Below the pieces are notes generated by a model. That model saw nothing but the letters and a program-made list of their open reading frames with translations, was not told the DNA's origin and made no database searches. This document shows positions 3,136 through 13,306 of a DNA stretch of 64,000 nucleotides, in pieces (within the stretch, counting starts at the first letter, position 1; each line of letters opens with the position of its first letter). The position numbers were made by a program, and so were the translations under genes. Source of the DNA: Syncephalis plumigaleata (lineage: Eukaryota; Zoopagomycota; Zoopagomycetes; Zoopagales; Piptocephalidaceae); assembly GCA_025201365.1 (NCBI GenBank), contig JAIXMF010000018.1, forward strand, positions 389,388-453,387, in the 5' to 3' direction.

Positions 3136-3641
3136 ATGTCAACGTACAAAATATACACGACCTCATCTAAACAGTCATCAGCATTACTAATTATCATTTA
3201 CTATGATCGCATTCGTGCCTCTTTCTATTCTAGTGCGACAATTGCAGCAAAACCAAAGTCGGAATTGACAGAAGAGGAGTTGCGAAAGTTGGAAGAGGAG
3301 GAATTCAACACTGGCCCACTCTCCGTACTTCAACAAGCAGTACGTAATAATACTCAGGTACTTATCAGTTGCCGTAATAATCACAAGCTATTGGCGCGTG
3401 TCAAGGCATTTGATCGACACTGTAATATGGTACTTGAGAATGTCAAAGAGATGTGGTCAGAGGCACCAAGAGCTGCTAAGGGACAGAAAAAGTCCAAACC
3501 TGTCAATAAGGATCGATTCATTAGTAAGATGTTTTTACGTGGTGACTCGGTCATTCTTGGTAAGTAGTAGCAGTATTCATACGTTCATTCATTAGTGCTC
3601 ATTTCATTTCCCTTCTTATAGTTCTCCGTAACACGGTGTAA
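3136..3641 (+). CDS. SMD2: Small nuclear ribonucleoprotein SmD2
   Basis: Core Sm protein of spliceosomal snRNPs, part of the heptameric ring around the U-snRNA Sm site. Three exons (3136-3143, 3234-3559, 3622-3641) give 117 residues, against 118 in human SNRPD2. Splicing the first 90-bp intron (GTACAA...TCTAG) leaves an 8-base first exon and gives the family N-terminus [15 protein letters not shown]; the unspliced frame has an unrelated N-terminus. Sm1 and Sm2 motifs are near-identical to the family: [40 protein letters not shown], then [13 protein letters not shown]. The basic [13 protein letters not shown] loop is intact. Only the very short C-terminus (NTV) differs from metazoan proteins. 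Confidence 0.96.
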
Positions 3642-3892
3642 TTAAAATTACATGCTATATATCAGCTAGTCATTTATATTGTTTTAATACTACAATTATA
3701 TTTCAACATAAATCATAGGGTAACACTATTCTATTGTAAAAGTGATTTATAATGAATTCAAATGGTTAATATTGTTAAAGCATAGTATAGTCATATCAAT
3801 ACAAAATACGTAGATTGATATTCAGTGATCAATTAGAGAAAACAACAAGGTGACACTAATAAATTACAGTAGTATTTATTGTAAGCTATTCA

Positions 3893-4666
3893 TTATTCGC
3901 TATCATCATCGCTATCATCATCACTATCATCATCACTGTCATCGCTTGACTCATTTTCAGATACCATAATAATTTGAGGTGGTGATGTAGTAGTATTTGT
4001 ATTAGATGATGTGCCTGGTAAACATATCTCTGGTATATTCTCCTCGGCATCAGCATGTTTCTTTTCCAACACGCCTAAACCTAGATTCTATATTATTTCT
4101 AGTGATTAATAACGTTTTCTTGTATATATTTCATTTCTTGTCAAGTATTCGTATTACCATTTCTATATATTCCTCGTCATCTGATACTGCTTCTATATCA
4201 AATTGTTGTGGATCTGCCTCCACCTGATGGAGTAATACTTGATTGGCTTGCTCCATCTGTGGTAGGAATGCGGCCACTTTAGACAACACTATAACATATG
4301 GCATATGAGCAATTGAACTACTCTATTCATTGTCTATATAGTCATCATTCTTACTTACAATCATTGGGTGCGGAAATACGTGTAATATTAGGTTTAGTCA
4401 TGGAAGGTGGTGATGCCATCTCAACATCGCTATCATCATCATTATTATTATCATCATCATCACTATCATGGATATGAGCATTATCCTTGTCATTGATTGT
4501 TGTAGAAATATTTAGTCGTTGTGCTATTCAATTCATTAGCAATACAGCTGGATAAACTAATAGAGTGCAATGATATAAACTTACCCAAGGAGGATGAAGA
4601 CGAGCCAATATTAAGCAAGTCTTGTGATGTTTTTGTGTCATTCTTGTCAGATATCATACGTGACAT
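3893..4666 (-). CDS. NOPCHAP1-like (DUF4598) snoRNP assembly chaperone
   Basis: Four exons on the minus strand (4666-4585, 4523-4359, 4288-4158, 4087-3893) join in frame to about 190 residues. The hallmark blocks are a FLPQMEQAN helix in the middle and YIEMNLGLGVLE near the end, as in human NOPCHAP1/C12orf45. In people that protein links NOP58 to the R2TP/RUVBL complex during box C/D snoRNP assembly. A Ser-rich N-terminus, an Asp/Asn-rich linker and a poly-(S/D) acidic tail surround them. Introns are 61-70 bp with GTAAG/GTAAT donors. Function is inferred from the family. The gene runs head-to-head with the exosome gene at 4891, about 225 bp between start codons, so the two probably share a promoter region. 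Confidence 0.8.
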
Positions 4667-10321: not shown

Positions 10322-11650
10322 TTTCTAATGGAGAATTGGTTATAATCTAGACCGATCCATACGCAATTAGTCACCAGTACCAGCATAGCTACTATTACTA
10401 CTACTATATGAATTGTACTGCTAAAGGCATGACAACCATATACCATTGGCTTTATCGTTACAGCTAAGCTATTACTTACCGAAATGATATGCACAATAAG
10501 CAAACGCTTGAAACCAAACAATATTGTGTCTGGCTCAGTTCAGTTTTTTCTTTTAGAAACGACAATGCAGCACTTTTTCGCACCGTTCGGATAGAGCTGG
10601 ATGAAGTATAGGCAGAAGTAAGAGGAGAGAGAAACGGTTTAGTACCAGTCTTTCTTTTTGACAGAGCTCCGTAGTATCTTTAGCATACAGACTAGAGCAA
10701 TAGCAATAATGACAGAAGAGAAGGAAGTGCCGTGTGTGTGAGTGAGTGTGTGTGGGGAGGATGGTGGGTGGTGTGGGACTCGAGTTGTTGTGTGGGTGTG
10801 CGCTTCCTATTTAAAATGTCATCATCGTATTATCTACTTGTGCGTACATGTGTGGTATATCTACCGCCTATCTATCACACTGCACGAGTGTATGTACGTA
10901 TGCGTGTGTGTGTGTGTGTCTGTGTGTCTGTTTATCATCTACGACTAGATATCTATTGTGTACAGCAACGCACCGTTATCCTATCTACACTGATAGATAA
11001 ACATGGATATAGCAATGGATATTGACGTATTAACAGCATACCTTTTACTTTTTCATAGTAGACAGGTTAGGCTATTCATAGCCGATAATTAATAGGGATA
11101 CCACATGCATGCATACTTACTCTACATGATGGTGCCTACACGTTTAATTCCTGTGTTGACGTTGTTCTAGTTCTTGTTCTTGTTGTTGTGTCTTTGCTGT
11201 TGCTGTAGTTGCTGTTGCTGTCGTGTATTCACAATAGAAACCAACCTAGATGAGTCGTGTATGGAAGGGCAGCAATGACATCATCGACTTCCATCTTGGT
11301 CGTAACTTTTGTCACATCATGCCAACCAACCTAAACTGTAAAAAAGTCGAACAAGCAAGTTATTACAATTGTTGATTCGCTCTCATTGGTAATATTTTCA
11401 AGTTTGATATTGTACAATACGTATGATATTAAGCTCGAAAACATTGTCGGTTAAAATGAATGGGTTGCGTTGATCGGCTTAAATAGATAAATTCTCCTAT
11501 CTATGACGATGACAATGACGATGATGATGCATGCTATAGGCAACATCAATGATAAACTGTCGTCATCACCTCAACTATATTTATCTTTGCTGACTAACCC
11601 ATGAAGTATACTTGCCAATATCCCCTTGTAATAACAATAACAATACAGGG
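10322..11650. other. Long intergenic region upstream of Hog1 with GT microsatellites
   Basis: No gene supported. (GT)n-rich tracts lie near 10731-10766 and 10893-10930, and the open frames across them are low-complexity artefacts. CAG/TTG-type repeats occur near 11160-11225. A short minus-strand frame starting near 11298 (MEVDDVIAALPYTTHL) could be an isolated first exon, but no matching second exon was found. Confidence 0.5.
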
Positions 11651-12187
11651 TTTTTCCATCCAATTTGCGCATTTATCTTTTCACTTTTGCAGTTTACTAA
11701 TAAATAGATTCACACAATTGTTAACACCATTATTACCGTAGAAATGCCAATTGATACAGCATGATAATAATAACAATTCAGTATTCAGTAATGGATCATT
11801 TATTGATAGGGATAAGTATCATCATCAATTCTATAAGGTAGATGATACAAGTGTACTAGTATAGTTGAATATTGCCATGTCATGTACTTACAAGTAGCTA
11901 TTGATTATCGTGTATGGAATCGGGATATGGCAGCATGTCTGAATTTTATTCAGATTATTCGCAGTGTTCGTACTATAAACCGTGTTCCAGAACAATTTGA
12001 ACGAAGTACCGTTCCTTCTAAACGTTCAAGCAATGAGGGACAAGATCAAGAGGGAACCAAACAACAAAAAACAATTCATCCGTGATAGTTATCGCTATCT
12101 ACACCCCAAAATACAGGCTAGTTGTAAGTGTTAATTATTATTTATTCGTAACAACAAAAGGCTAACTGTGCAAATTGGATGGAAAAA
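11651..12187 (+). mobile_element. MITE-like Fanzor-derived element with terminal inverted repeats
   Basis: The left end reads TTTTTCCATCCAATTTGCGC (from ~11653). The right end on the opposite strand reads TTTTTCCATCCAATTTGCAC (ending ~12187), an almost perfect 20-bp inverted pair. Between them, about 535 bp contain a stop-ridden segment (11735-11880) followed by a Fanzor C-terminal frame. This is the structure of an internally deleted, non-autonomous derivative of a Fanzor-carrying transposon. I see no secure target-site duplication next to the repeats. The element lies between Hog1 and the SOD gene and interrupts no recognised exon. Confidence 0.7.
11882..12085 (+). pseudogene. Fanzor nuclease, RuvC-III/C-terminal remnant
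   Basis: Frame of 67 codons containing DYRVWNRDMAACLNFIQII, then a SVRTINRVPEQFERS segment and a basic, polar tail. This is the terminal part of Fanzor proteins: the Asp of WNRD is the third RuvC catalytic residue, and 'VPxxFxR' is typical of the tail. It shares about two thirds of aligned residues with the relic at 177-581. The preceding Cys-rich zinc-ribbon part and the rest of the nuclease are missing, so it cannot be active. It lies inside the inverted-repeat element, ending ~50 bp before the right terminal repeat. Confidence 0.7.
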
Positions 12188-12327
12188 GTCTGTAGCAATA
12201 CGTTATCACTATAGTTGTCATTCCTCTCCCTCTCCTTATTCTATTCGTGCTTGTTCTCCTCCTCCTCCTTCTCTTTCTTCTTATTCTTTCTTCTTGATTA
12301 AGAACGCGTTTATTCACATATTACACT

Positions 12328-13306
12328 ATGCTTCGCTCTACCATACTTCGTGCTGCCTCGGCTTCTCTACGTAAGCCAACCCTTGGTGTTGCGTCGACAG
12401 CCGGTATGCTCGTAAGGAATAAGCATACCTTGCCTGACTTGTCTTATGACTTCCATGAGTTGGAACCTGTTATCTCGGCGGAAATTATGCGTTTGCACTA
12501 TACCAAACATCACCAGACCTATGTGAATAATTTGAACACCGCTGAGGAGAAGTTGGCGAGTGCTGTCCACGAAGCTGATCCCGTCGAGTATATTGCTCTG
12601 GCTTCTGCGCTTAAATTCAATGGTGGTGGTCATATCAATCACTCGATCTTTTGGACTAACTTGGCTCCACCTAAGAAGGGCGGCGGTGACACACCTACTG
12701 GTTAGTCGCGTCATAATAGCATTATTGTTACTGTTACTATTATCATATCATTATGCTAATCTATCAAACATGTATTGTGCACTCCTTATTAATAACAATA
12801 ATAACAATAACGATAATAATAACGATTAGGTGATTTGTTGTCTGCCATCGAGCGTGATTTCGGCTCATTGGAAAAGTTCACTAGTAAATTCAATACTACC
12901 ACGGCAGCCGTTCAAGGATCTGGCTGGGGCTGGCTCGGCTATAACACGAATAGTAAGGAGCTTCAAATTACCACCACTGCCAATCAGGATCCACTTCAGT
13001 GTAAGTAGCCAACATGACTGACTAATGCAAATAATTAAACAAATCGACAGCAACTACTGGTTTGATTCCATTGTTGGGCATCGATGTATGGGAGCATGTA
13101 AGTTGCATTAATATCTAGACTACTCATGAGTGGTCTCTCTCTTTCTCTCTCTGCCATTGAGCGTATAGCTTACATGATGCTATGTTGAAATACAGGCTTA
13201 CTATTTGGACTACAAGAATGCACGACCAGACTATTTGAAACGTATCTGGGAAGTGGTCAATTGGAAGAACGTTGCTGAACGATACAGCCAAGCTCAAAAG
13301 TCATAA
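12328..13306 (+). CDS. SOD2: Mitochondrial Mn/Fe superoxide dismutase
   Basis: Converts superoxide to peroxide and oxygen in the mitochondrial matrix. Four exons (12328-12700, 12830-13000, 13051-13097, 13196-13306) give 233 residues. An Arg/Ser/Ala-rich presequence ([16 protein letters not shown]) precedes [16 protein letters not shown]. Metal ligands are recognisable: His in [11 protein letters not shown], His in [11 protein letters not shown], Asp in GIDVWEH and His in the same motif. GSGWGWLGY and [13 protein letters not shown] complete the family pattern. Mn is the likely metal by resemblance to SOD2; the metal cannot be fixed from sequence alone. The gene converges on ALG8, with only 113 bp between the two stop codons. 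Confidence 0.96.

What the first reader, a model, noticed from the sequence alone, without database searches (positions are those of the whole stretch)
11651..12187. Compact inverted-repeat element built from the end of a Fanzor nuclease
A 20-bp, nearly perfect inverted repeat brackets ~535 bp that hold a RuvC-III/C-terminal Fanzor frame and little else. This is a non-autonomous derivative of a Fanzor-carrying transposon. The Fanzor 3' end plus the terminal repeat is where the guide (omega-like) RNA lies in known systems. The element may therefore still carry a guide-RNA scaffold without a nuclease and could be served in trans by a full-length Fanzor elsewhere in the genome.
Basis: partly seen in the sequence, partly recalled or inferred. 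Interest (0 to 1): 0.75.

Follow-up and report, generated by a model that had tools for sequence, protein, structure and literature searches.

The report
Gutted Fanzor transposon keeping guide-RNA end
A 547-base piece of mobile DNA in a fungus-like genome is a hollowed-out copy of a transposon that carries the RNA-guided DNA cutter Fanzor; it has lost nearly all of the cutter gene but kept the end where the guide RNA is made in known relatives, much like the 'ghost' elements already reported in another fungus.

Summary
The element is 11646-12192 (547 bp), TA-flanked, with Tc1/mariner-like ends. It is a colinear internal deletion of a 4,081-bp Fanzor1 transposon in the same genome: the left ~252 bp and the right end with the RuvC-III exon remain. 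The resident Fanzor1 is closest in the PDB to Parasitella parasitica Fanzor1 (E 7.6e-107). There are about 425 such elements (853 termini) in several size classes, and 13 Fanzor frames of at least 600 aa. A 98-99% identical second copy of the locus lacks the element and has a single TA, so the insertion is polymorphic. The right 69 nt can form a 7-bp SL1 and a 5-bp SL2, as published for PpFz1. SL1's 5' strand is in 45 of 45 longer right ends and 0 of 17 short ones, but folding and covariation support is weak. Left flanks are A-rich, equally in short and other insertions, so they give no sign of Fanzor action in trans. Saito et al. 2023 described such 'ghost' elements and proposed trans service. 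New member of a known kind; expression and trans use untested.

The parts
11646..12192 (+). 547-bp non-autonomous Fanzor-derived ('ghost') element, CAGGG...GTCTG
   Evidence: Both ends next to TA; 40 long copies scored; the allelic contig C78 lacks exactly this stretch
11644..11645 (.). left target-site duplication TA
   Evidence: single TA in the empty allele
12193..12194 (.). right target-site duplication TA
11646..11677 (+). left terminal inverted repeat core (common family form CAGTGTTTTTCCATCCAATTTGCGCATTTATC; this copy CAGGG)
12161..12192 (-). right terminal inverted repeat core (common family form CAGGCTTTTTCCATCCAATTTGCGCAGTTAGC on the - strand; this copy CAGAC)
11646..11897 (+). retained left part = positions 1-252 of the 4,081-bp Fanzor element, 93% identical
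11897..11903 (.). deletion junction: about 3.5 kb of the parent (Fanzor exon 1 and upstream region) missing
   Evidence: the 595-bp sister L075 has the joint 258|3736
11882..12085 (+). 67-aa remnant frame: fused left-end residues + Fanzor exon 2 with the RuvC-III motif WNRDMAACLNF
   Evidence: 22 of 29 distinct 535-595-bp copies keep the frame to the same end
12124..12192 (+). putative guide-RNA (omega/reRNA) scaffold, 69 nt
   Evidence: Position and fold as published for Fanzor1; predicted fold; pair counts. Not shown to be expressed
12124..12130 (+). candidate SL1 5' strand GTAAGTG
   Evidence: 45 of 45 non-short right ends, 0 of 17 short; could also be a splice-donor-like word (recalled, not tested)
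12139..12145 (+). candidate SL1 3' strand TATTTAT
12159..12163 (+). candidate SL2 5' strand AGGCT
12187..12191 (+). candidate SL2 3' strand AGTCT (family AGCCT; the change keeps a G-U pair)
12195..12214 (+). host flank that would act as the guide if the RNA is made (GCAATACGTTATCACTATAG)
   Evidence: inference; genome search

Best explanation
This is a Fanzor 'ghost' element. It arose by internal deletion from a 4.08-kb, TA-inserting, Tc1/mariner-type transposon that carries a two-exon Fanzor1 gene, and it was then amplified as a MITE by a transposase acting in trans on its terminal repeats. Its last 69 nt still hold what is most likely the Fanzor1 guide-RNA scaffold: SL1, then SL2 built from the right terminal repeat, then the TA duplication, then a guide read from the host flank at 12195 onward. 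Likely working: transposase in trans moves it. Where its right end is transcribed, a resident Parasitella-type Fanzor1 may load the RNA and cut the matching empty site, so that repair copies the element back. SHOWN here: parentage, deletion, ends, TA duplication, copy number, a polymorphic empty allele, presence of long open Fanzor frames. INFERRED: the transposase class (TA target, CAGNG ends), the scaffold identity. UNTESTED: transcription, loading in trans, cutting, homing. The confidence below is for origin and element type.
For: Full-length parent at C362:519076-523156, matching the window element in order on both sides of the gap. Parent protein to 9cf0 (Parasitella Fanzor1) E 7.6e-107 and 8gkh (Spizellomyces) E 2.2e-35. 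Eighteen of 20 Fanzor loci (L031-L050) carry the same right end within the fetched stretch; 13 of 25 PF07282 matches (all 25 under the family cut-off) lie in frames of at least 600 aa, some possibly alleles of each other. 853 termini against 0 in the control. TA directly on both sides in 35 of 37 element rows, 33 of 35 distinct elements. Precise single-TA empty site on C78, whose flanks are 98-99% identical. SL1 forms standard pairs in 98.7% of cells over 45 right ends against 42-68% when slid by 1-3; the stem was read from these same sequences, which favours it. The alifold consensus of the 15 Fanzor right ends (80 nt) shows both stems, z -1.78 over 60 column shuffles. Published Fanzor1 guide-RNA anatomy.
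Against: Fold energy is no better than shuffles (window copy z 0.11, parent z 0.79), and the window copy's centroid keeps SL2 but not SL1. On the larger alignments (57 and 44 right ends, and the 25-26 of the 547-bp class) alifold prefers a different 8-bp helix, TTTATTCG with TGGATGGA, over SL1 and SL2. SL1 and SL2 vary on one side only, with no two-sided compensatory change; SL2 is fully paired in 41 of 57 right ends. No transposase with exactly these ends was found. Short elements without SL1's 5' strand amplified too, so the scaffold is not needed for spread. GTAAGTG is not uniquely conserved: 40 of 417 interior 7-mers are equally invariant in the 547-bp class. Rfam finds nothing in 11000-13000.
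Confidence: 0.88

Rival explanations
1. An ordinary MITE and nothing more: the right end is kept only because the transposase needs it, and the Fanzor exon and scaffold are passive passengers that no longer act. This shares the origin given above and rivals only the guide-RNA function.
For: Short classes (210-239 bp) that keep only about 61-68 bp of the right end, without the SL1 5' strand, have spread. The A-rich left flank is the same in short (17 of 31) and other (79 of 132) insertions, p 0.69. No excess fold stability.
Against: Of 163 distinct left-end insertions sampled, 132 are not of the short class, and all 45 longer right ends examined keep GTAAGTG, with a full pairing partner in 41; but copy number alone does not show selection.
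Confidence: 0.6
2. The remnant frame 11882-12085 makes a selected small protein (for example a dominant-negative RuvC-III/C-terminal peptide).
For: 22 of 29 copies keep the frame to the same end; mean dN/dS 0.60 over 231 pairs of the 22 in-frame copies of 28.
Against: By eye, variation in the segment is a mosaic shared in part with Fanzor genes, so the coding pattern may be inherited from full-length copies by recombination. The dN/dS set was chosen for open frames. Indel events are 1.88/kb/copy in the frame, 3.80 in the left part and 17.02 right of it; none of the 9 in the frame is a multiple of three.
Confidence: 0.07
3. A degenerate full Fanzor transposon that decayed in place, rather than an amplified deletion derivative.
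For: It carries only a fragment of the gene.
Against: Forty long copies align to it nearly from end to end, and the insertion is polymorphic against an empty allele.
Confidence: 0.01

Closest known systems
Ghost Spu-1 elements of Spizellomyces punctatus (Saito et al. 2023, PMC10432273; section 7 read in full, passages of the rest)
   Same: About 550 nt, terminal repeats of the Fanzor element, no Fanzor gene, right-end region similar to the ~75-nt guide-RNA scaffold, outnumbering Fanzor loci (134 vs 42 there). The authors raise trans use by Fanzor (passage of the discussion).
   Different: Here the ends are those of the Fanzor elements, whereas there they differ at seven positions. This element is a colinear deletion that still carries the RuvC-III exon. 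The left-flank preference is soft (A/C before TA) rather than a conserved CA. A second class without SL1's 5' strand coexists. A polymorphic empty allele is seen.
Fanzor1-only elements with Mariner ends and TA duplications (Bao & Jurka 2013, PMC3627910; 12 of 23 found passages seen)
   Same: The parent element here: Fanzor1, no transposase found, Mariner-like ends, TA duplication.
   Different: The passages I saw do not describe gene-less derivatives of this kind.
Parasitella parasitica Fanzor1 (Xu et al. 2024, PMC11423790; sections 4 and 5 read, passages of the rest)
   Same: Closest solved relative of the resident Fanzor; 75-nt guide RNA, 7-bp SL1, 4-bp SL2 next to the guide; TAM 5'-ATN.
   Different: The resident protein probably lacks the ~100-aa RuvC insertion: 112 residues of the PpFz1 chain lie between the two matched blocks, against 14 in the query.
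SfAV Fanzor1 element (Yoon et al. 2023, PMC10711439; section 27 read, passages of the rest)
   Same: Non-autonomous transposon with terminal repeats; repeat and target duplication are predicted to be part of the guide-RNA scaffold; RNA runs ~15 nt past the duplication.
   Different: It encodes Fanzor itself; viral; two copies.

Membership tests
MITE / non-autonomous DNA transposon | terminal inverted repeats, target-site duplication, multiple copies, no transposase | tested here: met
Tc1/mariner superfamily | TA target duplication | tested here: met
   35 of 37 rows, 33 of 35 distinct elements; single TA in the empty allele
Tc1/mariner superfamily | transposase of the superfamily with the same ends | tested here: inconclusive
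   DDE_3 search: 31 match rows at 26 places; ends looked for at 12 of the 26 places; L057-L061 and L066 have related but different ends (CAGGGTTTTTCCAACCAGTTGGCA). DDE_1: none
Fanzor1 ghost element (Saito 2023) | shares terminal repeats with Fanzor-encoding elements of the same genome | tested here: met
Fanzor1 ghost element (Saito 2023) | lacks a Fanzor gene | tested here: met
   only the RuvC-III exon end is left
Fanzor1 ghost element (Saito 2023) | right-end region like the guide-RNA scaffold region of the full elements | tested here: met
   92% over 76 nt (with TA) to the parent right end; that this region is the scaffold is inferred
Fanzor1 ghost element (Saito 2023) | conserved motif upstream of the left repeat (CA there) | tested here: inconclusive
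   A or C before TA in 122 of 150 distinct left flanks; a bias, not a fixed motif
Fanzor1 ghost element (Saito 2023) | guide RNA expressed and bound by Fanzor | not testable with these tools
   needs small-RNA data
Fanzor1 protein (resident, full-length) | C-terminal pattern with C4 zinc finger and RD (Bao & Jurka) and homology to solved Fanzor1 | tested here: met
   alignments to 9cf0 and 8gkh, with CCPACNNP, CHGLLR and WNRDMAACLNF

The most novel reading that the evidence does not exclude
Several hundred ghost copies act as a dispersed set of guide RNAs for about a dozen resident Fanzor1 genes, so that a nuclease supplied in trans protects or spreads gene-less elements. The coexisting short class, which lost SL1's 5' strand, is the natural guide-less control. 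In the one filled/empty pair seen, a 3-nt difference makes the empty allele differ from the guide from the fifth base after TA onward, in what would be the start of the guide; such mismatched alleles could be the ones that escape cutting.
Probability: 0.25. Interest if true: 0.8.

Novelty: new member of a known kind. Interest (0 to 1): 0.42.

Why it matters
Ghost Fanzor elements have been reported in Spizellomyces punctatus (PMC10432273); this is a case in a genome whose Fanzor is of the structurally solved Parasitella type. It comes with the full parents, a scaffold-bearing and a scaffold-less derivative class, and an allelic empty site. That set makes the open question, whether Fanzor serves gene-less elements in trans, directly testable by small-RNA sequencing and by comparing the two classes. 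If the answer is no, it is a well-documented example of MITE birth from a Fanzor transposon.

Tried and rejected
Pfam on the remnant frame and Rfam on 11000-13000: nothing relevant. Transposase partner: DDE_1 none. The DDE_3 transposases whose ends were seen have related but not equal ends or quite different ones, and a 4.52-kb carrier of them has no blastn match to the Fanzor element at E 0.01. Transposase remains in the 1.6 kb upstream of Fanzor exon 1: twelve frames listed, three of them scanned with Pfam; one gave two weak hits under the cut-offs (DUF5408, DUF4131), no transposase. TAM-like asymmetry as proof of Fanzor action: the asymmetry is real (A just before TA in 89 of 150 left vs 38 of 136 right flanks, p 1.2e-7), but it does not differ between short and other insertions (an earlier smaller sample, 18 vs 100, gave no difference either), so I rejected it as evidence. 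Selection on the remnant frame: not interpretable because of mosaic variation and conditioning. In one search my anchor was loose and misplaced SL1 in many rows; one search is the corrected count and one search is not used. The motif search used a badly chosen 20-mer and found nothing; it bears on no claim. Literature searches: Fanzor+MITE, Fanzor+mariner+terminal inverted repeat (17), Parasitella+Fanzor+TAM (32), Fanzor+non-autonomous+transposon (60), TnpB+in trans+non-autonomous+omega RNA, any three (61), Fanzor+Mucoromycota (76, none), Fanzor+transposon+fungal+guide RNA+right end, any four (80). From these listings I opened four papers (PMC3627910, PMC10711439, PMC11423790, PMC10432273); the others I saw as listings only, so I cannot say that no other report of ghost elements exists.

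Full report
What is there. The finding's inverted repeat is the core of a complete element at 11646-12192. The outermost bases are CAGGG on the left and GTCTG on the right, with TA immediately outside on both sides. The inverted repeat is 63 nt long at 73% complementarity. The whole-genome search gave 57 matches, of which 40 are long copies (the 40 scored of 977 first-look candidates) at 86-100% identity, each over at least 520 of 537 positions. The terminus GGGTTTTTCCATCCAATTTG occurs 416+437 times at up to two mismatches, against 0 for the reversed pattern. The left-end 33-mer occurs 194+230 times at up to three mismatches, control 0. So there are roughly 425 elements, counting alternative haplotypes. 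Within the window a scan with up to two mismatches to 17 bases of the end finds only this one.

Direct sign of insertion. The guide-flank search (20 bases, up to three mismatches) returned the window site and one other, on the 28-kb contig C78; the backward-read control pattern gave 12 matches, so such a hit alone means little. But C78 matches the window at 99% (637/646) on the left and 98% (1277/1308) on the right of the element, and reads ...AACAATAGCAACAATACG... where the window without its element reads ...AACAATAGCAATACG.... C78 is therefore an allelic, or recently duplicated, empty site with a single TA and a 3-nt difference in the adjacent simple repeat. The insertion is polymorphic within the assembly.

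Parent. PF07282 finds 25 matches, all below its cut-off. L031-L050 (20) are Fanzor loci, by my reading of frames and shared right ends; 13 of the 25 matches lie in open frames of at least 600 aa, and some may be alleles of each other. The five others (L051-L055) look unrelated by their frames, which I did not scan. Eighteen of the 20 Fanzor loci have the family's right end within the fetched stretch; L034 and L036 do not. For one, the left side was fetched: the element is 4,081 bp, C362:519076-523156, TA-flanked, with a 655-codon open stretch and, in another frame after what I take to be an intron, an exon 2 holding WNRDMAACLNF. The exon-1 product matches Parasitella parasitica Fanzor1 (9cf0) at E 7.6e-107 and Spizellomyces Fanzor1 (8gkh) at E 2.2e-35; exon 2 matches 9cf0 at E 0.0052. 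The window element is colinear with this parent: its first 252 bases at 93%, then 70 bases of exon 2 at 96%, a 34-base piece at 91%, then the last 76 bases (with TA) at 92%. The sister L075 (595 bp) has the joint 258|3736. About 3.5 kb of the parent is thus missing.

Size classes. Besides about 533-602 bp there are 0.97-1.23-kb elements; the three looked at keep parent positions 1-88 and parts of 3549-4081. Short elements of 210-239 bp keep about 1-88 or 1-174 and only the last 61-68 bp or so. TA lies directly on both sides in 35 of 37 element rows (33 of 35 distinct, because two are seen twice in overlapping loci; some rows are alleles).

Guide-RNA region. In known Fanzor1 systems the scaffold is the right end itself. 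In S. punctatus it is 75 nt plus 14-15 nt of flank (PMC10432273 section 7). Terminal repeat and target duplication are predicted to be part of the scaffold, and RNAs run ~15 nt past the duplication (PMC10711439 section 27). PpFz1 has a 75-nt RNA with a 7-bp SL1 and a 4-bp SL2 before the guide (PMC11423790 section 5). Here the minimum-energy fold of the last 69 nt has a 7-bp stem (12124-12130/12139-12145) and a 5-bp stem (12159-12163/12187-12191) in both the window copy and the parent. The second stem is possible only because the right repeat differs from the left (GGC outside and AGGCT inside, against GTG and AGGAT); two of its five pairs cannot form in most left ends. Over 45 distinct right ends of the 547-bp, 1.1-kb and full classes, GTAAGTG is present in 45, all seven SL1 pairs form in 41, and 98.7% of pair cells are standard, against 42-68% when the partner is slid by 1-3. 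The distance from SL1 to the end varies from 68 to 75 nt. The 17 short right ends all lack GTAAGTG. SL2 is fully paired in 41 of 57 right ends. Against this: fold energies equal those of shuffles (z 0.11 and 0.79) and the window copy's centroid keeps only SL2. Alifold z-scores are -0.35 to -1.79 on the right and +0.24 on the left, and only the alignments of Fanzor right ends give SL1/SL2 (both stems in the 80-nt one, SL2 in the 62-nt one); the larger right-end alignments and those of the 547-bp class give another helix, TTTATTCG with TGGATGGA. There is no two-sided compensation. Within the 547-bp class GTAAGTG is one of many invariant words (40 of 417 interior 7-mers). The scaffold identity is therefore by position and architecture, not by covariation.

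Insertion-site asymmetry. I listed flanks of 187 of 249 exact left ends (150 distinct) and 165 of 260 exact right ends (136 distinct). The base before TA is A in 89 of 150 on the left and 38 of 136 on the right (p 1.2e-7); the next base out is A in 91 of 150 against 56 of 136 (p 0.0013). Published Fanzor TAMs (CATA, TTAA, ATN) made this look like a nuclease signature. I therefore compared insertions of the short class (31 distinct) with the others (132 distinct, meaning no right end within the short range; many of these were not read to their right end): A before TA 17 of 31 against 79 of 132 (p 0.69), second base 17 of 31 against 82 of 132 (p 0.54), A then A/C 11 of 31 against 64 of 132 (p 0.23). 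The bias shows no dependence on the scaffold in this sample, so the simplest reading is transposase target preference. With 31 short insertions a modest difference could be missed.

Remnant frame. 22 of 29 distinct copies keep the 67-aa frame to its end. Mean dN/dS is 0.60 among the 22 in-frame of 28 copies; indel events per kb and copy are 1.88 in the frame, 3.80 in the left part and 17.02 to the right of it. By eye, the segment after the RuvC-III motif is a mosaic of a few short words, some shared with Fanzor genes, so recombination among copies explains the pattern at least as well as selection.

Transposase. The genome has Tc1/mariner-like DDE_3 transposases (31 match rows at 26 places). 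One group, five 383-aa copies, has ends CAGGGTTTTTCCAACCAGTTGGCA, related to ours but not the same; the one carrier read in full is 4.52 kb, without blastn similarity to the Fanzor element. I looked for ends at 12 of the 26 places and found no carrier with exactly our ends, so the trans-acting enzyme is not identified.

Verdict. The kind is known: Saito et al. called such loci ghost elements and raised trans use of their guide RNAs. I file this as a new member. The differences (same ends as the parent, retained RuvC-III exon, coexisting scaffold-less class, polymorphic empty allele) make it a good test bed rather than a new kind.

Noticed in passing
window 12328-13021 and beyond: A gene with an Fe/Mn superoxide dismutase N-terminal domain (PF00081, E 2.6e-31) starts 135 bp right of the element, on the strand that the guide RNA would be read from.
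   Followed up: partly
L211 (G000:C78:14600-17200): Allelic or duplicated contig 98-99% identical to the window around the superoxide dismutase gene but without the element. Repeated flanks on small contigs suggest that the assembly holds other alternative haplotype contigs.
   Followed up: partly
L068 (G000:C1:571300-574900): A Tc1-like transposase frame (380 aa) between perfect 213-bp inverted repeats starting CAGTGAGGGAAAG sits at the edge of, or inside, a Fanzor-like frame of another copy.
   Followed up: no
L069+L061 (G000:C362:900765-905285): TA-flanked 4.52-kb element with a 383-aa DDE_3/HTH transposase and ends CAGGGTTTTTCCAACCAGTTGGCA, related to the ghost ends; five copies with equal scores, one about 5 kb left of the window (C90:384266).
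   Followed up: partly
window 11948-12010 and the same segment in L001-L050: The stretch after the RuvC-III motif varies as a mosaic of a few short coding words, some shared between ghost and Fanzor copies, suggesting recombination or gene conversion.
   Followed up: partly
G000:C4:18980, C124:296167, C223:634534, C340:519337: Four left ends, three of them within 4 kb of a Fanzor locus, share the same 8-base left flank AAGAAAAA; this may be a duplicated larger segment.
   Followed up: no
window 12124-12130: The invariant GTAAGTG of the candidate SL1 also looks like a 5' splice site (recalled); it might be kept for splicing rather than for guide-RNA structure.
   Followed up: no
right ends of the family; window 12141-12148 with 12176-12183: A rival 8-bp helix, TTTATTCG with TGGATGGA, preferred by alifold on the larger right-end alignments; together with SL2 it would make a pseudoknot.
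   Followed up: no
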